Shown here: positions 3,842-17,293 of the stretch, piece by piece
Position numbering within the stretch: position 1 is the first letter of the stretch
Layout of the letters: each line of letters starts with the position of its first letter
NCBI GenBank assembly: GCA_902537815.1
Contig: CACBCS010000002.1
Span: 1 to 64,000 of the forward strand
Length of the DNA: 64,000 nt
From: an uncultured Pseudohongiella sp.
GTDB lineage: Bacteria; Pseudomonadota; Gammaproteobacteria; Pseudomonadales; Pseudohongiellaceae
Direction: 5' to 3'
Notes under the pieces: model-generated
The model's input: only the letters and a program-made list of their open reading frames with translations
Told to the model about the DNA's origin: nothing
Database searches by the model: none
Translations under genes and position numbers: made by a program

Positions 3842-3918
3842 CGGGGCGTAGCGCAGTCTGGTAGCGCACCACACTGGGGGTGTGGTGGTCACAGGTTCAA
3901 ATCCTGTCGTCCCGACCA
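3842..3918 (+). tRNA. tRNA-Pro (GGG anticodon)
   Basis: A 77-base cloverleaf with CCA encoded. The acceptor stem CGGGGCG pairs with CGTCCCG, allowing the C1-G pair. The anticodon stem CCACA/TGTGG encloses loop CTGGGGG, giving anticodon GGG at 3876-3878. The T-arm contains GGTTCAAATCC. The 3' 23 bases (3896-3918) recur with two mismatches at 17136-17158, which marks this gene as the integration site of the downstream island. The gene itself is intact. Confidence 0.96.
3896..3918 (+). repeat. attL-like repeat (tRNA-Pro 3' end)
   Basis: The last 23 bases of the tRNA gene, including the T-arm and CCA, match 17136-17158 with two mismatches. This is the expected left attachment site of an island that restores the tRNA on insertion. 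Confidence 0.8.
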
Positions 3919-4095: not shown

Positions 4096-5295
4096 TTGCA
4101 GAAACTTACGGCAATACAGGTAGATAAAGCCAAACCTGCTGATAAACCAAGAAAGCTGACAGATGGTCGTGGTCTCTATTTATACCTTCATCCAAATGGG
4201 GGTAAATACTGGCGCTATGACTATTCCATTTCTGGCAAGCGAAAGACTTTTTCCATAGGAACGTATCCAGATGTGGGCCTTGCGGACGCTAGGCTGCAAC
4301 ATCAGGCGGCCAGAGAGGCTGTTGCCAGAGGTGAAGACCCTACAGAATTGAAGAGGCTTAAGCGGCTAACCCAGAATATTGCCGCTGGAGAAACTTTTGA
4401 GGCCATAGCTACTGAGTGGTTTGAGACTCATATGGCCGATAAGTCAGAGAGTTACCGCTCTAGAAGCCTGAGAATCCTCAAGAAAGACTTATTTCCACCC
4501 CTTGGGCGACGCCCAGTATCTGCGCTCGCTGAGCCTGAAATCCTCCTAGCGCTGCGTGTAGTTGAGCGTAGGACGGTTGATATTGCTCACAGGGCATGCC
4601 AGCTGACTAGCCAAGTGCTTGCTTATGCGAGGATAACAGGCAGATTGGAGCGAAACCCTGCTGTGGGCCTCTCTAAAGCACTTAAAAGGACCAAAGTTAG
4701 GCACTATCCTGCTTTAACAGACCCGAAAGACCTTAGGCGCCTGCTCTTGGCTGCTCAGGATTATCGTGGGCTTGGCGTTGTTGCTATCGCTCTGCGGCTT
4801 TCAATTCTCTTGTTCCAGCGTCCAGGTGAGATAAGGACTATGCGCTGGGACGAAATAGACATTGAGAAATCGCGGTGGGTGAGGGCGTCGGTTAACCAGA
4901 AGTCTAATCGTGACCACATTACGCCCCTTCCTTTACAGGCAATGGAATTACTAGAACAGGCTAAGCACTTCTCTAGTGGTAGTGAATATGTATTTCCTAA
5001 CGCTCGTGGAAAATCTAGGCCCATGAGTGATAACGGCGTAAGAACTGCACTAAGAACGCTAGGGTTTGATAAAGATGTAATATGCCCTCATGGTTTCAGA
5101 GCGATGGGTAGGACAATCCTGGAAGAGAGATTGAAATACCGTTCGGTGCTGATAGAGCTTCAAATTGCCCACAAGGTTAAAGACCCTATGGGTGATACCT
5201 ACAATAGGACAGCATTTATTGATGAGCGAACAGAGATGATGCAGACCTGGGCTGACTATCTTGATGCGCTTATCGGAGAAGACCCTGCTGAGTAA
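4096..5295 (+). CDS. P4-type tyrosine integrase (DUF4102 N-terminal domain)
   Basis: Site-specific recombinase of 399 aa, the usual length for tRNA-targeting island integrases. The N-terminal DUF4102 arm-binding domain is clear (KLTDGRGLYLYLHPNGGKYW and GTYPDVGLADAR), followed by a core-binding domain and the catalytic domain. Catalytic residues visible are R242 (QRPGEIRTMRW), H332 and R335 (CPHGFR), H359 (IAHK) and Y369 (DTYNR). All are present, so it is probably active. The start is a TTG at 4096 preceded by GAGGGCGGG. It most likely integrated this island into tRNA-Pro. Confidence 0.95.
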   Translation: MQKLTAIQVDKAKPADKPRKLTDGRGLYLYLHPNGGKYWRYDYSISGKRKTFSIGTYPDVGLADARLQHQAAREAVARGEDPTELKRLKRLTQNIAAGETFEAIATEWFETHMADKSESYRSRSLRILKKDLFPPLGRRPVSALAEPEILLALRVVERRTVDIAHRACQLTSQVLAYARITGRLERNPAVGLSKALKRTKVRHYPALTDPKDLRRLLLAAQDYRGLGVVAIALRLSILLFQRPGEIRTMRWDEIDIEKSRWVRASVNQKSNRDHITPLPLQAMELLEQAKHFSSGSEYVFPNARGKSRPMSDNGVRTALRTLGFDKDVICPHGFRAMGRTILEERLKYRSVLIELQIAHKVKDPMGDTYNRTAFIDERTEMMQTWADYLDALIGEDPAE

Positions 5296-5519: not shown

Positions 5520-5705
5520 TTGGTAAAAAAACCGCCTCACCCAATACCGATACAAGGTTACAACAAGATGAGGCGGGTCCACGTTCCCACAATTAAGCTT
5601 GAACAGGCTCGTGGTAAGGACAAACCTACAGAATTAAACGTATTGGCTATCAATAGTGACAGGACGTTTCCAGATTCTGGAATAGTTAAAGCAGTGAGAG
5701 GCTAA
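5520..5705 (+). CDS. Small hypothetical protein
   Basis: A 61-aa basic reading frame with a TTG start at 5520 preceded by an AAGGA-like site; an internal ATG at 5568 is an alternative. It contains no recognised domain. Its stop lies two bases before the ATG of the next small gene, which in turn overlaps a third by ATGA, so the three probably form one transcript. The spacing is the main argument that it is real. Confidence 0.4.
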   Translation: MVKKPPHPIPIQGYNKMRRVHVPTIKLEQARGKDKPTELNVLAINSDRTFPDSGIVKAVRG

Positions 5706-6056: not shown

Positions 6057-6524
6057 TTGCTGCTAAACGATATGGAAGTGAAAGAGATTAAAGTCAGTGA
6101 CGACCTTGAAAAACTCATACTTGATATAAATTCTGCTTCGTGGGATGAGGGAAATGATATTCAACACTATTCAGTATCTTGTTTAAGTGCGTATTTAGAT
6201 AGGCAGGACTCATTGTTTTTGGCATGTTACCTGGACCGCGATGGTCAAAATACTCTCATGGGTATTGCTTCCGCACGTATTGAATGGAAACCCTATGCAG
6301 ACAGACCCTGGTTATACGTTGACGAGATAGACACATGTTGTGACCATCGCAGAAGGGGCGTTGCCACAAAATTAATGTCGGCTTTTTTCAATCTCGCGAA
6401 GGAGAAGGAATGTGATGAAGTGTGGTTAGGGACGGAGTCAACTAATCTAGCCGCCCAAAAGCTGTATCAATCTTTGAGTCCTCAGCATGCTGACCTATTT
6501 ATTGGTTACACATTTAATATGTAA
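6057..6524 (+). CDS. GNAT-family N-acetyltransferase
   Basis: Acetyl-CoA-dependent acyltransferase of 155 aa. GNAT motif A is clear at residues 88-104 (VDEIDTCCDHRRRGVAT), with the acetyl-CoA phosphate-binding RRRGVAT loop. A typical C-terminal strand-helix follows (EVWLGTESTNLAAQKLYQSL). The general outline resembles small-molecule acetyltransferases such as the AAC(3)-I group, but the substrate cannot be read from sequence. The start may be TTG 6057 or ATG 6072. It lies five bases after the preceding small gene and may belong to the same transcript. Confidence 0.85.
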   Translation: MLLNDMEVKEIKVSDDLEKLILDINSASWDEGNDIQHYSVSCLSAYLDRQDSLFLACYLDRDGQNTLMGIASARIEWKPYADRPWLYVDEIDTCCDHRRRGVATKLMSAFFNLAKEKECDEVWLGTESTNLAAQKLYQSLSPQHADLFIGYTFNM

Positions 6525-6980: not shown

Positions 6981-6988
6981 TACGGAAA

Positions 6989-7082
6989 ACACTCACCATC
7001 TTCCGCAAGTGACTAGCTAAGGATATGTCTCCAGGTTTGTCTGGTAGCACCCACAGGCACCCGCTTGTAGAAGAAATCACCA
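6989..7082 (-). pseudogene. Decayed 3' fragment of the RHH-like gene family
   Basis: On the minus strand this segment matches the end of the 13235-13489 gene (coding for DFFYKRV-LPDKPEDVSLASH-RKMVTV). It has a 10-base internal duplication (GGGTGCCTGT then GGGTGCTACC) that shifts the frame and leads to a TAG stop. The 5' half of the gene is absent. It is therefore a third, dead copy of the family found intact at 8040-8282 and 13235-13489. Confidence 0.75.
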
Positions 7083-8039: not shown

Positions 8040-8282
8040 TCAAGAGTCCGACCTCCATGCTTCAAACGGAGGCACAGTCAAAATCTTCCGCTCGTGGCTA
8101 GCTAAGGATATGTCTGTGGGTTTGTCTGGAAGCACCTGCATGTCGAAGAAATCACGCCAGTTGTTCCAGCTGTCTTCATAGACCAGGACTTCAATTGCCT
8201 GCCAGTATTCAGGCTCCAAGGCTAAACAGCTTCGCCCGCTGTCTAGGTCAATGTGACGCTGTTCTAGGTATCTTCTGGACAT
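8040..8282 (-). CDS. Ribbon-helix-helix-like small protein, copy 2
   Basis: 80 aa. The segment DLDSGRSCLALEPEYWQAIEVL resembles the strand-helix start of RHH_4-type domains (a short strand, then LEPEFWxAL), followed by a second helix (WNNWRDFF). RHH proteins are usually DNA-binding dimers. It is closely related to the 84-aa protein at 13235-13489 and to a dead fragment at 6989-7082. The C-terminal ends differ (PPFEAWRSDS here). It is not next to a recognisable toxin. The DNA-binding role is inferred from the fold resemblance. Confidence 0.65.
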   Translation of the reverse strand: MSRRYLEQRHIDLDSGRSCLALEPEYWQAIEVLVYEDSWNNWRDFFDMQVLPDKPTDISLASHERKILTVPPFEAWRSDS

Positions 8283-8438: not shown

Positions 8439-9986
8439 CTAATCGAAGTTCCAGGCATCGATGAATGAACGCGAGCGAGAACTATCCATTATTTTGGTCG
8501 CCCAATCGACCAACTGTGCATTTTTCGCGGAAAGATCCAAAGACTCTCCGGGATCATTATCTAAGTCATACAATTCGAAAACAGCTTTTGTTTCGGAGCT
8601 TTCATTGTACAAGCGTACTGCTTTCCAGCTTTTGGAAGAATCATCCAAAAATCTGACTGCTTGCGCGTGACCCCCTCGTGTATTGTGGAATTCCCAGTAG
8701 AGACTTTGATGTTGTTCTTGTCCCTCTGCCTGCAATAGGGCTGGCAAGAAAGACAATCCATCATTGTTTGGTGAAACTGTGCCTGCGAGATCAGCCAGTG
8801 TAGGCATAAGGTCCCAGAATGCGGACACATGGTCGCTGCGACTCCCTGGTTGGATTCTGCCAGGCCAACGTGCCAAAGTGGGCATTCGGATACCACCCTC
8901 ATACAGGTCGCGCTTGTAGCCGCGGTAAATGCTATTTGAGTTGAAAAACTCTATATCGCCACCCCCTTCTGGGGTAGGTCCATTGTCACTACTAAAAATG
9001 ATCAAGGTATTGTCACTTATTCCTAATTTTTCAAGCCGATCTATTATTGCTCCAACGCTACGGTCAATATTAGAAATCATGGCAGCTCTTGCAGCTCTTG
9101 GTTTTGGGTGCGGCAAGTAATTCTGTTTTGCAGTGTAGGGTGTTTCATCAAACGATGAATAAGATACCAAATTTTCATCCGGCACTTGCAGCGCAGCATG
9201 AGGAGAAGCATATGCTAAAAATAAAAAAAACGGCTGCTCGTCGGTTGTTTCTATAAATTCTAAGGCAGCATTGTTTAACCTGGTCTGGGCATAGTCTTTC
9301 CTCTGGTAGGGTTCATAACTAGTCAAGTCATAGGGGTCGGCGCCAGCAGGTAAACTCTGATGCGGGTGCAAAAACGCATTATCGAGAGGATAGCGTTCTT
9401 CGTTTTCCCAGAGGTGAGTCGGGAAGTGATTGTGGGCTTGCTTTTGATCCAGGTAACCCAAGAAGTAATCGAACCCGTGCTTGTTTGGCACGCCATATGA
9501 ACCAGGGCCGCCGAGGCCCCACTTTCCTATTAACCCAGTTCGATAGCCTGCGTCTTGCAGCATGGTGGCAACCGTAGCTGTCCCTGGATTCAGGGGCATC
9601 TGGCCGAATTCCTCTTCATCTGTAAAACCGCCTAATTCGAAGTTTCCTCGGATTTGCGTGTGTCCAGAGTGCAGGCCTGTCATCAGAGCAGCCCTGGATG
9701 GTGCGCAGACAGTGTTTCCAGCATAGTGCTGAGTCAGCACCATACCCTCACGCATCATACGGTTTAGGTTTGGTGTCTTAATATGTTGTTGACCAAACGG
9801 CTCAATATCACCGATGCCTAAATCGTCGGCGAGGATGTAAATAACATTGGGTCGGGAACCCGCCGCATTATCGATAGGCGAACGCGCAGACGTCATTTGT
9901 GTATATTGAATCAGGCAGAAGCAAAGCAGTATGAGGGCCGCCATTTGCTGTGTGGTTGTGGCTTTGTGAAAAGTCTTGGTGCTCAT
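8439..9986 (-). CDS. Sulfatase (arylsulfatase-type), exported
   Basis: Type I formylglycine sulfatase of 515 aa that hydrolyses sulfate esters. A hydrophobic signal segment covers residues 15-35. Metal-binding aspartates are at ADDLG (54-55). The maturation signature C94-A-P-S-R98 is perfect, followed by the expected LMTGLHSGH. Further sulfatase motifs are GKWGLGG and the FSSDNGP metal site. It follows the second sulfatase gene by 12 bases, so both are one transcript. Substrate is unknown; sulfated algal or animal polysaccharides are common targets in marine bacteria. No formylglycine-generating enzyme is encoded in the window. Confidence 0.93.
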   Translation of the reverse strand: MSTKTFHKATTTQQMAALILLCFCLIQYTQMTSARSPIDNAAGSRPNVIYILADDLGIGDIEPFGQQHIKTPNLNRMMREGMVLTQHYAGNTVCAPSRAALMTGLHSGHTQIRGNFELGGFTDEEEFGQMPLNPGTATVATMLQDAGYRTGLIGKWGLGGPGSYGVPNKHGFDYFLGYLDQKQAHNHFPTHLWENEERYPLDNAFLHPHQSLPAGADPYDLTSYEPYQRKDYAQTRLNNAALEFIETTDEQPFFLFLAYASPHAALQVPDENLVSYSSFDETPYTAKQNYLPHPKPRAARAAMISNIDRSVGAIIDRLEKLGISDNTLIIFSSDNGPTPEGGGDIEFFNSNSIYRGYKRDLYEGGIRMPTLARWPGRIQPGSRSDHVSAFWDLMPTLADLAGTVSPNNDGLSFLPALLQAEGQEQHQSLYWEFHNTRGGHAQAVRFLDDSSKSWKAVRLYNESSETKAVFELYDLDNDPGESLDLSAKNAQLVDWATKIMDSSRSRSFIDAWNFD

Positions 9987-9998
9987 TGTTTATAAAGC

Positions 9999-11855
9999 TT
10001 AATTATCTAGGTGGTCCAGGCGCAGAGTCAAATTAGATTCCTCATCCGACGTCCACTGGGCCGGGAACATGTCCTGGCTGACTTCAATCTGGTAATCATG
10101 AAAGTCCTGAAGCAAAACTATAGTATTTAGAATGATCATCGCTTCTATTGTATTGTCAGTTTTGCGTAGCGCATCGACGAGGTAAGGGCCGGGATTTTCT
10201 GCATGTACTAGGCCGAGAAATTCAGCAGCGCGCACCCGTACAAGATTTTCGCTGTCTCCAGTTGCCATGCTCTGAGCGATCTCGGTAAAGGTTTGCGCTT
10301 CTTCTCTGAAACTGCTCAAGACTATCAGCCCCCAATATCGCACCCAGGGGTCTTCTGACTTCAGAGCAGTCTCGATGTCTTCTGTAACGTCATCGAATGA
10401 CTGCAAGCCCAAGTCTGCGATATCAACCAAATCAGCGATACGAGCACTGTTCTTCCGACCGAATGAGACGGGGTCATCAAAAGCTTCCGTAAATAACATG
10501 CTTTCAGGAAACATGCTGAGGTCATTGATAGACTTAACGCGGCCATTTAATTCCTGTCGCATCTCAATTAGCACGTCAGCATAAGCAGGGTCCTTCGCAA
10601 GGTTTACGGTTTCGAATGGATCATCGCCAAGATCAAATAATTGCTCTGCAGCTCGTGGTTCAAAGAATTGCTTTTGAGTTTCGTCAAGTGAGCCTGCCCG
10701 ATACAACTCCCACCATTCAGCATATGCGAGCATGCGATACCGATACTCGTTAAACAGAGCGTCGACGTTGAAGGGCTGATAATTACGGATATACTTTATG
10801 TTCCCTCTGCGCAATGTCCTTACATGGTCGATTTTCTCATCGAACCGATCGGCATAGCCAAAGACTTCATTTCGACTATTAACTTCCTCAATACTCACCC
10901 CGGCACCGAGGAAGGGTCTGCCGTCCATGTGCGGTGGTATGTCTATCCCAGCCAAATTTAGAATAGTTGGTGCGAAATCAATAAAGCTCACAAACCCTTT
11001 GATGCGAGAGCCATAGTCTGCATCGACCAAGTGTTTCCAATTTTTCGGTATATAAATTACTAAAGGGACGTGCAAACCATTTTCATAGGCGTATCCTTTT
11101 CCTCTAGGAAGCACTCCGCCATGATCTCCGAAATAAAAAATAAACGTGTCATCCAGCACACCGTCTTCTTCCAGCATCGCAATATAGTCTGCAAAATAGT
11201 TGTCCACACGAACATGATTATCTAAATAGCGCGCGTGGGTATAGCGAAACGTTGGTGTGTCAGGAAAGTATGGAAACAAGGCGACTGAATCAGATGTGGT
11301 TTTATTCACGGTTATCTCCATTTCTTCTCTCGAGAAATGCAGACTACTTTCGTGAGTAATGGCAGTGTTCTGTACGTGCAAAAACGGCTGCCCAGCTTTT
11401 CGATTACGCCAATGTGCATTAGGAGAAGAATCGTTCCAGCCTTCGCCAGCGATCACATTGTAGTCGGTTTTACTATTGTTGCTTGTGTAATATCCGGCCT
11501 GTTGCAAGTACCAAGGATACATTTTCCCATTATCGGGCATAGGAACCAATTTTGAGCGACGATGGTATTGAGTTCCTATGCGTGGAGCATATGCGCCTGC
11601 AATTAAGGTAGTTCGCGCAACGGAACAAACCGGCGCATTCGAAAAAGCGTGCTCGAAAACTAACCCATGCTTGGCCAAGCCTTCGATCGCCGGCATCGCG
11701 ATACCGGCTTCACTGTATATGCGGCTAAAGTGGACCGAATTGTCTTCGGACGTAAGCCACACAAAATTCGGTAGATCAGCCGCATATGCGCTGAAGCAGG
11801 AAATCAGCAGGCCCGTCATAGAGATAATAAGTTGTATAACTTTCATAGCTTGCAA
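9999..11855 (-). CDS. Sulfatase with atypical CSVAR signature and HEAT-like C terminus
   Basis: 618 aa, exported (hydrophobic residues 5-25). The WLTSEDNS metal-binding start (35-40) and the FYFGDHGG site identify the sulfatase fold. The catalytic-cysteine signature reads C77-S-V-A-R81, with V where the consensus has P or A. After the catalytic domain, roughly residues 480-600 look like HEAT-type helical repeats (SEDPWVRYWGLIVLS; NLVRVRAAEFLG), as seen in some SEDN-type sulfatases of heparinase-like clusters. It leads the two-sulfatase operon. Whether its cysteine is converted to formylglycine is uncertain. Confidence 0.9.
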   Translation of the reverse strand: MQAMKVIQLIISMTGLLISCFSAYAADLPNFVWLTSEDNSVHFSRIYSEAGIAMPAIEGLAKHGLVFEHAFSNAPVCSVARTTLIAGAYAPRIGTQYHRRSKLVPMPDNGKMYPWYLQQAGYYTSNNSKTDYNVIAGEGWNDSSPNAHWRNRKAGQPFLHVQNTAITHESSLHFSREEMEITVNKTTSDSVALFPYFPDTPTFRYTHARYLDNHVRVDNYFADYIAMLEEDGVLDDTFIFYFGDHGGVLPRGKGYAYENGLHVPLVIYIPKNWKHLVDADYGSRIKGFVSFIDFAPTILNLAGIDIPPHMDGRPFLGAGVSIEEVNSRNEVFGYADRFDEKIDHVRTLRRGNIKYIRNYQPFNVDALFNEYRYRMLAYAEWWELYRAGSLDETQKQFFEPRAAEQLFDLGDDPFETVNLAKDPAYADVLIEMRQELNGRVKSINDLSMFPESMLFTEAFDDPVSFGRKNSARIADLVDIADLGLQSFDDVTEDIETALKSEDPWVRYWGLIVLSSFREEAQTFTEIAQSMATGDSENLVRVRAAEFLGLVHAENPGPYLVDALRKTDNTIEAMIILNTIVLLQDFHDYQIEVSQDMFPAQWTSDEESNLTLRLDHLDN

Positions 11856-11891: not shown

Positions 11892-11918
11892 AAAAGGCAG
11901 TCTTGGGGCTGTCTTTTT
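11892..11918 (-). terminator. Bidirectional-looking terminator hairpin
   Basis: GGCAG and CTGTC pair (one G-U) around an 8-base loop, flanked by AAAA on the left and TTTTT on the right, so it can act on both strands. It immediately follows the stop of the 55-aa minus-strand fragment at 11918 and precedes the sulfatase operon start. Confidence 0.65.
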
Positions 11919-12085
11919 CATTTGGCAGTGAGCAATGACCTTCGCTGCTCCATGTCTGCGGGTGCTATTCGTTGCGTTTGCCGCAACTCTAAACCAACAA
12001 AGATAAGGGAGCCAATTACTCCAAGTACGCCAAGGAAATTCGCGACTCCAGTGAATGATATTGCTGCGGGTATTTTTGAAGACAT
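11918..12085 (-). pseudogene. Truncated copy of the LELRQ membrane protein family
   Basis: Reads as 55 aa. The first 40 residues (MSSKIPAAISFTGVANFLG onward to GLELRQTQRI) match the N termini of the 167-aa and 156-aa proteins at 13954-14457 and 13483-13953. The homology then stops and an unrelated 15-residue tail runs to a terminator. The upstream 12100-12155 segment also matches the 3' end of the 14454-14741 gene. This is a decayed duplicate of the operon; a short membrane peptide could still be made. Confidence 0.7.
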
Positions 12086-12099
12086 GACTAGACTCCTAG

Positions 12100-12155
12100 T
12101 TATAGTTCATCAATTACTTTTTCGACCTTTATTGGAATAGTTGAAATGGTGATTT
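12100..12155 (-). pseudogene. 3' remnant of the 95-aa gene family
   Basis: The minus strand encodes KITISTIPIKVEKVIDEL followed by TAA, nearly the same as the last 18 residues of the 14454-14741 product (NITISTIPIKDEKVINEL). The rest of the gene is gone. Together with the 11918-12085 fragment it shows that a two-gene unit was duplicated and then eroded. Confidence 0.65.
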
Positions 12156-12721
12156 TCGAAGACAATTAATCATCTAAGCTTACTAGTATGCAGTGAGAGA
12201 AAACGCACGATAATGGTGCGCTATGCCTTCTGTGATGCAATTTATTTCGGAATTATGAGATCTTCGTTACAGAAGCCAAATTACTTTGACATTCAGGCAA
12301 TCCAATGGTCCTATCAAATACGTTGTTTTTCGCTACATTCCAGAATACAAATTAGTAACCAGATGAGACTGTTGTTCAAAAAATCAGAATGCGAGGAGCA
12401 CAAAATTTTGAATCTCTCGTTGAACTAGAGACAGCGGTCAGCGGATCAAGTGCTTTTGAAGAGTATCGAAGCGAAGTAGGCGATGTGCGCGAATTACTCA
12501 ATACTTCGTTGATAACACCAGTGATGAACTGGCCTAGAAACTAGCAAAATAGGGTAACTACATTGTCTAATCACCTGTTCCTAAAGGGATGATCGGGCCT
12601 TTAATTTACGCATAAATCGATTACTCAAAGGCCCTAATTTGCGTCTGCTAAGGCTGCGATTTGGCCTTGCAGACTGCTTACAAGATTGCTGACCATAAAA
12701 TAGTCTAAAAAGGAGACCATA
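12156..12721. other. Gene-poor segment with one weak 51-codon frame
   Basis: No secure gene. A plus-strand frame at 12389-12544 (starting MRGAQNFESLVELETAVSG) could be a remnant or a tiny gene, but it has no ribosome-binding site. The last part presumably carries the promoter of the 143-aa gene, whose AAGGAGA site is at about 12710. Confidence 0.4.
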
Positions 12722-13153
12722 ATGTACAAACTCATTTTATTGCTGGCCACGCTTTGCGCCGGTATAACATTTCCGCTTGCTGGCTATAGTTTCGATGTCA
12801 CAGGAGACAGAGCAAATCTTTCTGGCACAATTACTTCAATCGAATTGACTGACGAAGGTGGAGTCCTAAATGTTGTGTCTGACAATGAACTCTATGGCAA
12901 AACTTGGCTGACTTATAATATCAACTTAGATAACCCTAACTCCGTAGATCAAGGCTCTTTTAGTGGGAGGGCCACTGCGATTAATACTGACGGATCGAGA
13001 GCAACCTCTACCCGTCAAGGGGTTTGGAGTAGGGACGGATATATATATTCATTTTACTCGCTAGATGATGCTAGTGATGGTAACCAATACATATGTATTA
13101 CGACAATGAACTTACAAGATGACTCCGTGGAAATGCAATTTTATCCGAAGTGA
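12722..13153 (+). CDS. Exported small protein with DG-QGVW-SLDDA motif, copy 1
   Basis: 143 aa with a clear signal peptide (LILLLATLCAGITFPLAGYS), then about 120 mostly beta-strand residues. An AAGGAGA site precedes the ATG. The segment GRATAINTDGSRATSTRQG, then VWSRDGYIYSFYSLDDASDG, matches the 116-aa protein at 15346-15696. Family and function are not recognised; the alternating strand pattern suggests a small beta-barrel. One copy is exported and the other lacks a signal peptide. Confidence 0.75.
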   Translation: MYKLILLLATLCAGITFPLAGYSFDVTGDRANLSGTITSIELTDEGGVLNVVSDNELYGKTWLTYNINLDNPNSVDQGSFSGRATAINTDGSRATSTRQGVWSRDGYIYSFYSLDDASDGNQYICITTMNLQDDSVEMQFYPK

Positions 13154-13175
13154 GTAGTGCAGAATTTAGAATGGA

Positions 13176-13195
13176 GGGGGAGCAGCAGCTCCCCC
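13176..13195. terminator. GC-rich hairpin without T tract
   Basis: GGGGGAGC and GCTCCCCC form a perfect 8-base stem around AGCA, 22 bases after the stop of the exported protein gene. No T run follows on either strand, so termination is uncertain. Confidence 0.35.
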
Positions 13196-13234
13196 CTAAC
13201 AAACTGATCGGATAACAAAGATCCATCATTCCGC

Positions 13235-13489
13235 TCATTCAGTGCCCGCGCGACACTGCCTGAACTCATCAAACAGAAACACAGTCACCATCTTCCGCAC
13301 ATGACTGGCTAAAGATACGTCTTCGGGTTTGTCTGGTAGTACCCGCTTGTAGAAGAAATCACGCCAGTTGTTCCAGCCATCTTCGTAAGCCAGGACTTCA
13401 AGTGCTTGCCAGTATTCACGCTCCAAAGCTAAACAGCTTCGCCCGCTGTCTAGGTCAATGTGACGCTGTTCTAGATATCTTCTCAGCAT
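13235..13489 (-). CDS. Ribbon-helix-helix-like small protein, copy 3
   Basis: 84 aa, the last gene of a four-gene minus-strand operon. It shares the opening RRYLEQRHIDLDSGRSCLAL and most of the central 60 residues with the 8040-8282 product, diverging at the C terminus (FLFDEFRQCRAGTE). The LEREYWQALEVLAYEDGW region resembles RHH_4 domains. It overlaps the upstream gene by seven bases. As the promoter-distal gene it could be the operon's own repressor (inference). Confidence 0.7.
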   Translation of the reverse strand: MLRRYLEQRHIDLDSGRSCLALEREYWQALEVLAYEDGWNNWRDFFYKRVLPDKPEDVSLASHVRKMVTVFLFDEFRQCRAGTE

Positions 13490-13953
13490 TCTTCATATTC
13501 CCAATCCAAGACGATTTCAGAGAGAGCGGCATTTGAAAAGGTGAGAGCTAATTCGCTGATAGAGCGAAATTTACATATGCCATAAAGGTTTCGCATAGCG
13601 GCAACTTTAGAAGTCCAAACTCCTTCATCTATTAACCCTAGTTCATGCTGAAGATGGTCATTTTCATAAAGCATCCAAAGTTGATAGGCGGCATTAGCGC
13701 CAAGGTTAAAGTGGTCTTCACTTAAGTTGTTTGTAACCATATCTTCCCAATTAGCTGGGTTATCAGGATAGGAGAACGTGCCAATGATATCTACTAAGGT
13801 GTCAGTTCTTGCTTGTTGTTGTGACGCTAAAGCGATTATCTGTGATTGTCTCAGCTCCAATCCAACAAAAATTAATGAACCAATGACACCAACTACGCCT
13901 AGGAGATTGGCAATTCCAGTAAATGATATTGCTACGGGTATTTTTGAAGGCAC
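13483..13953 (-). CDS. Membrane-anchored LELRQ-family protein, copy B
   Basis: 156 aa. Residues 9-32 form one transmembrane helix (FTGIANLLGVVGVIGSLIFVG) ending in the hallmark GLELRQ. The remainder is a soluble, mostly helical domain. Similar proteins with a single helix followed by a Q-R-Q/N stretch are widespread hypotheticals. A GTG start at 13953 follows the upstream stop with no gap, and GGAG lies eight bases before it. It differs strongly from its neighbour outside the first 40 residues, so the pair arose by an old duplication or by shuffling of the anchor. Confidence 0.75.
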   Translation of the reverse strand: MPSKIPVAISFTGIANLLGVVGVIGSLIFVGLELRQSQIIALASQQQARTDTLVDIIGTFSYPDNPANWEDMVTNNLSEDHFNLGANAAYQLWMLYENDHLQHELGLIDEGVWTSKVAAMRNLYGICKFRSISELALTFSNAALSEIVLDWEYEEC

Positions 13954-14457
13954 CTAATTTTCTCCTGAACCTTTTATTCTACTTTCAATCAAGGCTTTCC
14001 ATTCAGGAGGATAAAGTCGTTCTACTAAACCTAAATCTTCCCATCTTTCATAGATTTCCATACTGACGATGTCATCAAGCGTCCTTTCCAAGGCGATTTC
14101 GTCCAAAAACCCCTGTTTATACTGGTAAAATTGACTTTCCATCCGCCATTGAACGGCTGTCTCCCAGGCTATCATCCTGCGTAATTCAGTTTCTGTCAGA
14201 GCACCAGCACCAAGAATTGCTGTCTTCACCATTATTTCAGCCAGGTCACCTGATGCGGCAAGATTTCGCTGCGCTTGCTGCATTTCACTCAAGCGTGTTT
14301 GATATGCATTCGTCATCGCAAGTCTTTTGTTTTGTCTAAGTTCTAGCCCGACAAAAACAAGAGACCCGATAATTCCAATTACACCAAGAAAATTGGCTAC
14401 TCCAGTAAATGATATTGCTGCGGGTATTCTTGAAGACATGACTGGACTCCTATTCAT
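13954..14457 (-). CDS. Membrane-anchored LELRQ-family protein, copy A
   Basis: 167 aa (or 161 from the internal ATG giving MSSRIPAAIS). One transmembrane helix (ANFLGVIGIIGSLVFVG) ends in LELRQN, followed by a helical soluble part (YQTRLSEMQQAQRNLAASGD and WETAVQWRMESQFYQYKQGF). It resembles common hypothetical proteins in which a membrane anchor precedes a four-helix-like domain; no function is known. Its start overlaps the upstream stop by four bases (ATGA). It is one of three copies in the island. Confidence 0.78.
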   Translation of the reverse strand: MNRSPVMSSRIPAAISFTGVANFLGVIGIIGSLVFVGLELRQNKRLAMTNAYQTRLSEMQQAQRNLAASGDLAEIMVKTAILGAGALTETELRRMIAWETAVQWRMESQFYQYKQGFLDEIALERTLDDIVSMEIYERWEDLGLVERLYPPEWKALIESRIKGSGEN

Positions 14458-14741
14458 AGCTCATTAATTACTTTTTCGTCCTTTATCGGAATAGTTGAAA
14501 TGGTGATATTGATTCTTTCCTTGAAGTCAGTTCCTTTGTCGAAGGTGCTTACGGGGAGAATCCTATCCATAAGTATCTTCTGAGCTGCCGTTTGATTCTT
14601 GTGAGTGTCATCAACAGCAGTCTTTACGACCGTCTCTATGACCGTAGGAACGTCTGGATGCTCCAAAAGTGTTTGTTTCAACTCAATCTGCCTAGCCCAC
14701 ATCCCTGCTGGTCTGCCACGTTTGACGGAGGTTTTACTCAT
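14454..14741 (-). CDS. Small basic hypothetical protein (KRGRPAG start)
   Basis: 95 aa, first gene of the four-gene operon. The N terminus is basic with KRGRPAGMWARQ. The middle (TVVKTAVDDTHKNQTAAQKILMDRILP) resembles the helical, repeat-like segment of phage small-terminase or DUF5681-type proteins, which bind DNA; the likeness is weak. Its stop overlaps the next start (ATGA). A remnant of its 3' end sits at 12100-12155. Function unknown; DNA binding is inferred only from charge. Confidence 0.65.
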   Translation of the reverse strand: MSKTSVKRGRPAGMWARQIELKQTLLEHPDVPTVIETVVKTAVDDTHKNQTAAQKILMDRILPVSTFDKGTDFKERINITISTIPIKDEKVINEL

Positions 14742-14795: not shown

Positions 14796-15173
14796 ATGCA
14801 AGATTCAGCGAAACAAATCCAAGTCTTTTACGAATTGAAAGTATTGCCAGGTAAAGCTGCTGAGCTGAGGGAAATAGCAGAAAAGATGGTTGCGATGAAT
14901 GCCATCGAAGAGCCTGGGACTCTTGTCTATAATGTCTACTTCAATGATGACGAAACCCTTTTCACATACCTAGAAACCTACAGTGACTCAGAGACTGGTC
15001 TTTTCCATGCAGGTCGGTTTGCTGAAGGTGAATATGTTGGGCAAATCCTTGAGCGGACTGATGGCGGTAGACTTTGTTTCTATGGTGACATCTCAAGTGA
15101 GTTTAAAAACTGGGCAAAAGACAATGGGTTTGAACCCGAATATTTCAGTCTGATAGATGGCTTCGTCCGTTAA
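14796..15173 (+). CDS. ABM-like (antibiotic biosynthesis monooxygenase fold) protein
   Basis: 125 aa. The ATG at 14796 has a TAAGGAG site seven bases upstream, better than any earlier start in the frame. The pattern FYELKVLPGKAAELREIAEK, then EPGTLVYNVYFNDDETLFTYLETYSD, is that of dimeric alpha-beta barrel ABM proteins, in which a strand, a helix and an E-x-Y/E-x-W strand recur. These include cofactor-free monooxygenases and heme-degrading enzymes, but many have no known reaction. It diverges from the four-gene operon, with about 50 bases between the starts. Confidence 0.75.
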   Translation: MQDSAKQIQVFYELKVLPGKAAELREIAEKMVAMNAIEEPGTLVYNVYFNDDETLFTYLETYSDSETGLFHAGRFAEGEYVGQILERTDGGRLCFYGDISSEFKNWAKDNGFEPEYFSLIDGFVR

Positions 15174-15312
15174 TGCTAAAGATAGGAAAGGTCGATTACT
15201 TTTATACTCCAAGAGAAAAGGTGGTTGCGGTTTCCAGAAGCATTGGATTGTTTCAGGAAGCCGCGATTTTTTTGTGGGAGCTAGACCGCACACTTTCTCT
15301 AACAATCGAAGG

Positions 15313-15345: not shown

Positions 15346-15696
15346 CTAAACAGAAAAGACCTTCACATTCGTCTTCATCTCGAGCATATCGGCTTCTATA
15401 ACAGCATAATTTTGGTCTCCATTAGTGGCATCATCCAAACTATGAATAGTAATAATATTGCCTTCTCGCTTCCAAACACCCTGCAAGGTTGCGCCGATAG
15501 CGGAACCATCCTCCATTAATGCTCTAGCTTCGCCATCAAAATTACCTGCATTTTTTGTCGCGCTGTTTGAGTAAAGATTGTGGCTCGCAAAAACTTTTCC
15601 GTACTTTCCAACATTTCCTTCGGAAACCAACGTAGACCCGCCAGGGATTGGGATTACCGAAGTAATTTTCATTTCTGATTCAGCTATTAGCTCCAT
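15346..15696 (-). CDS. Small beta-rich protein with DG-QGVW-SLDDA motif, copy 2
   Basis: 116 aa without a signal peptide; the start has an AGGAG site. It aligns with the C-terminal two thirds of the exported 143-aa protein (GEARALMEDGSAIGATLQG, then VWKREGNIITIHSLDDATNG). It belongs to an unrecognised family of probable small beta-barrels. A cytoplasmic copy and an exported copy on one island suggest related binding roles in different compartments (inference). Confidence 0.72.
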   Translation of the reverse strand: MELIAESEMKITSVIPIPGGSTLVSEGNVGKYGKVFASHNLYSNSATKNAGNFDGEARALMEDGSAIGATLQGVWKREGNIITIHSLDDATNGDQNYAVIEADMLEMKTNVKVFSV

Positions 15697-17013: not shown

Positions 17014-17039
17014 CAATCCATTTTCGGGGCGTAGTGCAG
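17014..17039 (+). pseudogene. 5' remnant of a second tRNA-Pro locus
   Basis: Twenty-six bases match 3831-3856 with one mismatch. The match covers 11 bases of the tRNA's upstream flank plus the first 15 bases of the gene. After 17039 the similarity ends abruptly. Because the upstream flank is included, this derives from the chromosomal locus and not from a phage-borne attachment site. Confidence 0.75.
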
Positions 17040-17060
17040 ACTCTTAAATAAGATTTAAAA

Positions 17061-17085
17061 AATACGGTATAAATTACGGTATACG
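17061..17085. repeat. Inverted partner of the int-proximal repeat
   Basis: ATAAATTACGGTATA at 17069-17083 is the exact reverse complement of 4018-4032, and the flanking bases also partly match. TACGGTAT occurs twice here. It lies about 50 bases inside the right island end, the expected place for an integrase arm site. Confidence 0.6.
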
Positions 17086-17135
17086 AGTATTTTCTAATTT
17101 AAATAACGCTATTAAACAGAATTTTATAGATCAAA

Positions 17136-17158
17136 TTCGAATCCTGTCGTCTCGACCA
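17136..17158 (+). repeat. attR-like repeat (tRNA-Pro 3' end copy)
   Basis: Matches 3896-3918 in 21 of 23 positions, including AATCCTGTCGT and CGACCA. It marks the right island junction. Confidence 0.8.
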
Positions 17159-17293
17159 ATTTTTGAATCCTTCTGAACCGGTGTGCGGCCGCACAAGTCG
17201 CCCTCTACAGCAAGGCCGTGAAGGCTGTTTCTCAGTCATGTCGCTTTTTCTCTTCGGTGGCGTCTTCTTGGTGCAAGTACGCCATGAGCCAGC

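What the first reader, a model, noticed from the sequence alone, without database searches (positions are those of the whole stretch)
11918..14741. Repeatedly duplicated cassette of unknown small proteins (95-aa basic / LELRQ membrane / RHH-like)
A tightly packed operon (14741 to 13235, overlaps or zero gaps at all three junctions) encodes a basic 95-aa protein, two membrane-anchored proteins with the same first 40 residues but unrelated soluble parts, and an RHH-like protein. A second, eroded copy of the 95-aa/LELRQ junction sits at 11918-12155 beside a terminator. Conserved anchors with variable soluble domains suggest diversification of the exposed part, as in immunity or surface-recognition systems. 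No known defence or secretion family fits.
Basis: partly seen in the sequence, partly recalled or inferred. Interest (0 to 1): 0.72.

Follow-up and report, generated by a model that had tools for sequence, protein, structure and literature searches.

The report
Mix-and-match membrane protein gene array
In one group of marine bacteria, mobile islands at tRNA genes carry a recurring operon in which a row of small membrane proteins shares an interchangeable front end but differs in the part after it, which looks like a kit for building varied protective proteins, although what they protect against is unknown.

Summary
The operon is real and is one case of a recurring module. Window 14741-13235 (minus) reads p95 - LELRQ-A - LELRQ-B - RHH, inside a low-GC island at tRNA-Pro. 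In genomes of the same genus (one record title says Pseudohongiella) the layout is p95 - 0 to 5 LELRQ genes - RHH. Of 20 p95 3' ends, 12 run into LELRQ, 5 into RHH, 3 into something else; 15 of 24 stretches with module parts also hold a tRNA or tmRNA gene.

The soluble parts are not unrelated: they belong to one helical family without a convincing match in Pfam, NCBIfam or PADLOC. Cysteines come as 0 or 2 in 91 of 101 proteins, suggesting a disulfide outside the cytoplasm. Orthologous soluble parts are under purifying selection. Anchor type is scrambled against the soluble-part tree (10 changes, shuffled mean 10.2), and in S-type copies the first 12 codons are conserved even at silent sites (0.82, against 0.31-0.39 beyond codon 20): 5' ends were probably swapped between genes.

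Closest working analogue: tandem recombining immunity genes such as tipC. No toxin partner or function was found. Reader: partly supported.

The parts
3842..3918 (+). tRNA-Pro(GGG), left end of the island
   Evidence: ARAGORN; its 5' and 3' segments recur at 17014-17042 and 17136-17162
4096..5295 (+). tyrosine integrase (Arm-DNA-bind_3, Phage_int_M, Phage_integrase)
   Evidence: Pfam E 4.9e-25, 4.1e-22, 6.9e-12
17014..17162 (+). split tRNA-Pro-like repeat, probable right end of the island
   Evidence: 29 nt at 93% and 27 nt at 89% identity to the tRNA-Pro region, separated by other sequence
14454..14741 (-). p95: 95-aa basic protein, first gene of the module
   Evidence: ORF; relatives, some of them fragments, in 9 of 84 genus genomes, own included; dN/dS 0.10-0.28 in four comparisons; only weak DUF5681 resemblance
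13954..14439 (-). LELRQ-A: membrane-anchored protein, S-type anchor (likely start 14439; ORF extends to 14457)
   Evidence: orthologue in G716 (L140 8014-8499)
13483..13953 (-). LELRQ-B: membrane-anchored protein, S-type anchor; soluble part has the cysteine pair C127 and C156
   Evidence: ORF; AlphaFold2 model pLDDT 89.1; orthologue in G716 with soluble omega 0.04
13235..13489 (-). RHH_4-like protein, last gene of the module
   Evidence: PF13467 E 7.4e-5, below cut-off; relatives, some of them fragments, in 13 of 84 genus genomes, own included
12103..12159 (-). remnant of a p95 3' end (residues 77-95)
   Evidence: 79% identity, E 0.10 on its own; covered by the 193-nt repeat
11918..12085 (-). 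LELRQ-C: truncated copy, anchor plus a short stretch
   Evidence: a like-truncated copy in L128 4151-4366
8040..8282 (-). second RHH copy
   Evidence: 225 nt at 86% identity; protein 76%
6982..7050 (-). RHH 3' fragment (residues 50-72)
8439..11855 (-). two sulfatase genes (8439-9986, 9999-11855) lying between the p95/LELRQ-C remnant and the second RHH copy
   Evidence: Pfam Sulfatase E 7.1e-58 and 4.1e-32

Best explanation
Shown by computation: this is one copy of an accessory operon found, with the searches made, only in one genus, carried by islands at tRNA or tmRNA genes. Its layout is p95, then 0 to 5 tandem LELRQ genes, then RHH. The LELRQ proteins share an N-terminal hydrophobic anchor and a helical soluble part, often with a co-occurring cysteine pair. 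Inferred with good support: the 5' segment of the gene (start codon plus up to about 40 codons) has been exchanged repeatedly between genes with different soluble parts. Inferred: the soluble part faces the periplasm; RHH (perhaps with p95) represses its own operon at the conserved stretch before p95; the array grows, shrinks and recombines by homologous exchange at the repeated 5' segments and at p95 and RHH copies. Most likely, but untested: the LELRQ proteins are a repertoire of periplasmic exclusion or immunity factors, each specific for a different envelope-acting toxin or phage, working like the tandem membrane-bound immunity genes tipC of streptococci.
For: Linkage: of 20 p95 3' ends, 12 are followed directly by LELRQ, 5 by RHH, 3 by something else; the L135 array is p95, five LELRQ, RHH with 3-nt gaps or 1-nt overlaps. 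Co-occurrence: 8 of the 9 genus genomes with p95 also have RHH, which 13 of 84 have (about 1.4 expected by independence, my arithmetic). Islands: tRNA or tmRNA in 15 of 24 stretches, against 0 of 6 LELRQ-bearing stretches of G648/G640 (93 kb); integrases in the window and L141, AlpA in L141. Anchor exchange: label S/K needs 10 changes on the soluble tree, shuffled mean 10.2, at least 6 forced by starred branches; silent-site identity of 15 S-type copies is 0.82 in codons 2-12, 0.53 in 13-20, then 0.31-0.39 (site-wise p 0.0004), flat in RHH; the second LELRQ gene of C11 and of G716-C44 has an anchor at 78% identity (dS 0.49) but a soluble part at 21% with saturated silent sites. Export: cysteine counts 0/1/2/3 are 43/6/48/4 of 101 against 33/37/21/8 expected. 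Constraint: soluble omega 0.04-0.24 in five orthologous pairs. Analogue: PMC9484751 (abstract and sections 18-19 read).
Against: No toxin, secretion or defence gene noticed beside the arrays, though no systematic search was made; no convincing match for LELRQ in PADLOC, Pfam or NCBIfam. No relative found in viral contigs (p95, RHH, LELRQ), phage records (p95) or plasmids (LELRQ-B). As a control for exchange, dS should be equal in anchor and soluble part of orthologues: three of five pairs are similar (0.60/0.76, 0.68/0.81, 0.36/0.53), two are not (0.76/0.31 and 0.11/0.36, few sites). K-type copies show only a weak 5' gradient (0.52, then 0.25-0.36; p 0.51 with 2 sites), and within the L135 array anchors are nearly saturated at silent sites (42/105 against 30/96). 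p95 also has a 5' gradient (0.83 to 0.38), so selection on translation starts may contribute. The flank-charge difference that would set topology is weak. RHH is preceded by LELRQ in only about 11 of 27 copies. Many copies are broken, which fits turnover of dispensable cargo.
Confidence: 0.42

Rival explanations
1. Plain genomic-island cargo under turnover: p95 and RHH are regulators of the island, and LELRQ genes are one of several kinds of accessory gene that happen to accumulate between them. The repeats are by-products of island duplication; there is no dedicated repertoire system.
For: Other genes also lie between p95 and RHH copies: two sulfatases in the window, a reprolysin-like gene in inverted orientation in L131 and L141. 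Many copies are fragments. LELRQ genes also occur in integron arrays and outside these modules elsewhere.
Against: A LELRQ gene overlaps or starts within about 20 nt of the p95 stop in 12 of 20 cases, orthologues are under purifying selection, and anchors are scrambled among soluble parts: more order than random cargo would need.
Confidence: 0.33
2. Superinfection-exclusion proteins of a phage satellite: the islands are helper-dependent satellites, p95 is a small-terminase-like packaging adaptor, and the LELRQ proteins block entry of competing phages.
For: tRNA/tmRNA sites, integrases, and AlpA in L141; three of ten p95 members resemble DUF5681 weakly, best E 0.03; a gene with a weak helix-turn-helix match beside an RHH copy in L025, and a similar one by eye in L141. 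That DUF5681 resembles small terminases is recalled, not tested.
Against: The viral-contig and phage-record searches found no relatives; islands carry large cargo that does not look phage-like; the p95 model is poor (pLDDT 54); no primase was identified, though none was searched for.
Confidence: 0.15
3. p95 and RHH are a toxin-antitoxin-like addiction pair that stabilises the island, with LELRQ genes as passengers captured between them.
For: Two small genes whose ends overlap where no cargo lies between them: L025, L129, L141.
Against: Copies exist with either partner broken: p95 frameshifted with RHH intact (L025), p95 intact with RHH broken (L129); LELRQ-RHH without a p95 gene in L069; no toxin family match for p95.
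Confidence: 0.07

Closest known systems
Tandem recombining type VII immunity genes tipC / esaG / tsaI (and lpl lipoprotein arrays), PMC9484751
   Same: Strings of non-identical small paralogues; blocks of high DNA similarity at gene starts (about 55 nt for esaG, about 75 residues for tsaI); recombination through such blocks in esaG and tipC; TipC is membrane-bound and faces outside (paper: abstract and sections 18-19 read).
   Different: No toxin or type VII system noticed beside these arrays; LELRQ model is all helical while TipC is described with seven beta strands; bracketed by p95 and RHH; carried by tRNA islands of a Gram-negative genus. For tsaI, which has only a 5' block, the authors found little evidence of recombination.
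Chromosomal integron cassette arrays
   Same: Arrays of variable genes; members of the same LELRQ family fill such an array in a congener, G648: 13 of its 24 matches lie within 36 kb of an integron integrase, with repeats of about 105-117 nt.
   Different: Genes here abut or overlap, leaving no room for attC. A simple attC pattern found none in the window or L135 arrays, but it also did not exceed shuffles in the G648 array, so spacing is the argument. No integron integrase match in this genome, which is 71% complete.
PICMI phage satellites, PMC10803314 (passages read)
   Same: Tyrosine integrase plus AlpA in one island (L141); small marine element at a conserved site.
   Different: Primase, mandatory in the PICMI model, was not identified here (not searched for); sites here are tRNA/tmRNA genes, not fis; AlpA was not searched for in the window island; no helper phage known.
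RHH_4 family (PF13467)
   Same: Profile match over residues 7-68, E 7.4e-5.
   Different: 23.2 bits, below the family's 25-bit cut-off; position as last gene of this operon.

Membership tests
Tandem recombining immunity-gene arrays (tipC/esaG type) | Several non-identical paralogues in tandem, copy number varying between places and genomes | tested here: met
   0 to 5 LELRQ genes between p95 and RHH
Tandem recombining immunity-gene arrays (tipC/esaG type) | DNA homology blocks through which paralogues recombine | tested here: met
   5' block with silent-site conservation and anchor/soluble discordance; no dedicated breakpoint program was run, and two of five dS controls were uneven
Tandem recombining immunity-gene arrays (tipC/esaG type) | Cognate toxin or secretion system at the locus | tested here: inconclusive
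   None noticed among neighbours listed or annotated; most neighbours were read by eye, not searched
Tandem recombining immunity-gene arrays (tipC/esaG type) | Membrane-bound protein facing outside | tested here: inconclusive
   cysteine parity favours an exported part; flank charges weak; no topology predictor run
Tandem recombining immunity-gene arrays (tipC/esaG type) | Protein neutralises a toxin | not testable with these tools
   needs experiment
Integron cassette array | attC site between genes | tested here: not met
   small gaps or overlaps in window and L135; attC-like pattern 0 in both, a test of low sensitivity
Integron cassette array | integron integrase in the genome | tested here: not met
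   TIGR02249: 0 matches in G000, which is 71% complete
PICMI phage satellite | integrase, AlpA and primase together | tested here: inconclusive
   integrase in window; integrase and AlpA in L141; primase not searched for
DUF5681 (p95) | profile match above cut-off | tested here: not met
   3 of 10 members match weakly, best E 0.03
RHH_4 (PF13467) | profile match above cut-off | tested here: not met
   23.2 bits against 25; E 7.4e-5 still makes a distant relation likely
Known anti-phage defence families (PADLOC) | profile match | tested here: not met
   best E 0.0053 (LmuB) in 1 of 48 LELRQ members, 0.016 (PDC-M24A) in 1; no family for window p95, LA, LB, RHH

The most novel reading that the evidence does not exclude
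A gene-shuffling platform that works without an integron: on tRNA islands, the p95-RHH pair marks a capture site at which genes are inserted, and tandem LELRQ genes trade their start-plus-anchor DNA, so that each strain assembles its own repertoire of disulfide-bonded periplasmic proteins against envelope-acting enemies.
Probability: 0.2. Interest if true: 0.78.

Novelty: new variant of a known kind. Interest (0 to 1): 0.56.

Why it matters
The LELRQ family has no convincing match in Pfam, NCBIfam or PADLOC, yet fills both tRNA-island arrays and an integron array within one marine genus. If the arrays are repertoires of exclusion or immunity proteins, they are an easily read record of which envelope-acting enemies a population meets, and a case of modular anchor swapping between genes. 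The proposal is directly testable because the modules are small and self-contained.

Tried and rejected
Chance or convergence of the anchors: rejected for S-type copies by silent-site identity and by shared upstream DNA in the six copies behind a p95 tail. Recent gene conversion as the cause of anchor similarity inside the L135 array: not supported there, silent sites are near saturation, 42/105 in anchors against 30/96 elsewhere; selection on the protein explains that part. Hypervariability of the soluble part between orthologues: rejected. Integron cassettes: rejected for this array. A conserved site downstream of RHH: none common to all copies compared. Small-terminase-like identity of p95: tried by Pfam and PHROGs on ten members, weak only; model too poor for a fold search. 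Fold search of LELRQ-B: no PDB match better than E 1.8. Single odd profile hits (Pox_G5 E 1.9e-4 in 1 of 48; RskA_C E 0.0035 in 1 of 48) taken as chance because no other member supports them. Literature: five searches listed nothing on this module that I could see from titles and abstract openings; papers opened: PMC9484751 (abstract, sections 18 and 19) and PMC10803314 (passages only).

Rows dropped or adjusted: one search called 13 of 27 RHH starts preceded by LELRQ; I set two aside as spurious (E 0.004 and 0.009), hence about 11. It called L009 7357 'other' although one search shows the stretch before it 89% identical to the LELRQ end before L009 13333, and it missed two p95 cases that the p95 half of the same call shows (L131 2536, L132 3779). 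One search left out three proteins without a recognisable anchor and any with a soluble part under 70 residues; S and K labels were set by pattern, 14 of 50 rows unlabelled. The 101-protein set holds only ORFs of 120-199 aa.
Full report
What is there. The four ORFs at 14741-13235 exist as described. They lie in a 13-kb low-GC stretch (2-kb windows 40-47% inside, 50-56% in windows beyond 17 kb) that starts at tRNA-Pro 3842-3918, carries a tyrosine integrase at 4096-5295 and ends at a split tRNA-Pro-like repeat at 17014-17162: an integrated island. On the minus strand the order p95 remnant, LELRQ-C, two sulfatases, RHH repeats the module's outer genes around other cargo.

Copies in the same genome. 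G000 (2.14 Mb, 85 contigs, 71% complete) holds a second array on contig C11 beside tRNA-Leu: p95, five LELRQ genes (the last interrupted), RHH, and further along a partial third (L009). A third place, on C9 near tRNA-Arg and a 464-aa ORF that I read by eye as an integrase (not scanned), has a frameshifted p95 running directly into RHH (L025).

Distribution. p95 as a single query: 1 of 293 order genomes, the window's own. RHH profile: 3 of 321 class genomes, own plus two marginal. In the genus (84 genomes, own included): RHH 13, p95 9, both 8; some of these are fragments. Of the five genomes behind the eight loci of the genome-contig scan, one has a title that says Pseudohongiella, one says Porticoccaceae, the rest only broader names; contig lengths tie the first to G716. 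The LELRQ profile matched 29 of 59 family genomes, so LELRQ is a broad family, and p95 and RHH are the lineage-restricted parts as far as these searches reach.

Layout. One search classified what follows 20 p95 3' ends: LELRQ 12, RHH 5, other 3. For 27 RHH starts it gave LELRQ 13 (I trust 11), p95 3 (two more are visible from the p95 side), other 11. The best array, L135 (G715), is p95, five LELRQ genes, RHH with 3-nt gaps or 1-nt overlaps. In three copies without cargo (L025, L129, L141) p95 runs into RHH with an overlap. Other cargo between p95 tail and RHH includes a reprolysin-like gene in inverted orientation in two genomes. Of 24 stretches with module parts (window island, L009, L025, L069, L129-L148), 15 contain a tRNA or tmRNA gene: Pro, Leu, Arg, SeC, tmRNA; six LELRQ-bearing stretches of two congeners (93 kb) have none. 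The stretches differ in length and several come from one genome, so this is a rough comparison.

The LELRQ proteins. An iterated profile search over the ORFs then held gave 73 ORFs, some of them the same gene in overlapping stretches; a later set without identical copies gave 101 proteins. The AlphaFold2 model of LELRQ-B (20-sequence alignment) has pLDDT 89.1 and pTM 0.74: a long N-terminal helix (residues 11-61), which by its sequence holds the membrane segment, and further helices. Foldseek found no solved relative. Cysteine counts in the 101 proteins are 0: 43, 1: 6, 2: 48, 3: 4, against Poisson 33, 37, 21, 8; at the two alignment columns of LELRQ-B, island members have both in 33, neither in 17, one in 2 of 52. 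This argues for a disulfide and hence an extracytoplasmic soluble part; flank charges agree only weakly, and relatedness of the proteins is not corrected for. LELRQ-A lacks the pair.

Selection and exchange. Five orthologous pairs have soluble omega 0.24 (A), 0.04 (B), 0.23, 0.08 and 0.14: functional genes, not hypervariable ones. Different genes in one operon differ strongly (24-40% aa in the L135 soluble parts against 76-89% in anchors). On a tree of 50 soluble parts, the anchor label (24 K, 12 S, 14 unlabelled) needs 10 changes, as many as when shuffled (mean 10.2; about 275 of 500 shuffles as low), with at least 6 forced by starred branches (quick tree without mixture model, several long branches). 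DNA similarity of 15 S-type copies starts at about the start codon in nine copies with unlike upstream DNA, and further upstream in the six behind a p95 tail; it fades after about 40 codons. Third-base identity at four-fold sites of the S-type: 0.82 in codons 2-12, then 0.53, 0.39, 0.32, 0.31; p95 shows a like gradient (0.83 to 0.38), RHH none, K-type copies a weak one. Pairs are not independent. dS in anchor and soluble part is similar in three of five orthologous pairs and uneven in two, so the dS contrast of the C11/G716-C44 second genes (0.49 against saturation) is support, not proof. The simplest reading is repeated exchange of 5' segments; selection on translation starts may add to it.

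Family elsewhere. In congener G648, 13 of 24 LELRQ matches lie in 2.991-3.026 Mb next to an integron integrase at 3.027 Mb (370 bits, cut-off 265), with repeats of about 105-117 nt that I take for attC sites by eye. So the same protein family is spread by two gene-array systems; the window's array is not an integron.

How it most likely works. Shown: island, recurring layout, one anchor-bearing family, purifying selection, anchor/soluble discordance. Inferred: anchor exchange by homologous recombination, periplasmic location, autoregulation by RHH. Proposed: a repertoire of exclusion or immunity proteins. The published analogue is the tandem T7SS immunity genes, where blocks of homology let non-identical paralogues recombine and where TipC is membrane-bound and faces outside (PMC9484751). 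Against membership: no cognate toxin noticed, different fold, different setting. Phage-satellite and addiction-pair readings are kept as rivals.

Limits. The window's genome is incomplete; all function is inferred; toxin and primase searches of the neighbours were not made systematically; the pattern-based viral scans have limited reach; the literature searches cover only the held open-access library.

Noticed in passing
L064 and G648:C1:2991042-3027960: Chromosomal integron in a congener whose cassette array holds many LELRQ genes, with repeats of about 105-117 nt between genes.
   Followed up: partly
L131:6831-9248, L141:4401-6836: Reprolysin-like metallopeptidase gene (805-811 aa; only the L141 one scanned) inverted between a p95-like tail and RHH in two genomes.
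   Followed up: partly
L025:6177-6734, L141:6841-7098: Gene with a weak HTH_Tnp_1_2 match (L025 copy scanned) directly after an RHH copy; in L141 a similar ORF ends in a p95-like tail.
   Followed up: partly
window 12394-12553: 160 nt at 95% identity with the 3' end of a 234-aa gene on contig C11 (L009 13767-13926): a gene fragment.
   Followed up: no
window 12722-13153 and 15346-15696: Two related small proteins flank the module; tblastn relatives lie in L069, L136, L140 and L025.
   Followed up: no
window 15157-15277: 121 nt at 92% identity with L009 4051-4171, upstream of p95 in both places.
   Followed up: no
L025:5024-5096, 5672-5704, 6110-6182: Short direct repeats between small genes of the tRNA-Arg island.
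   Followed up: partly
L134:8548-8598: A 17-residue RHH start sits between two LELRQ genes, as if two modules had been fused.
   Followed up: no
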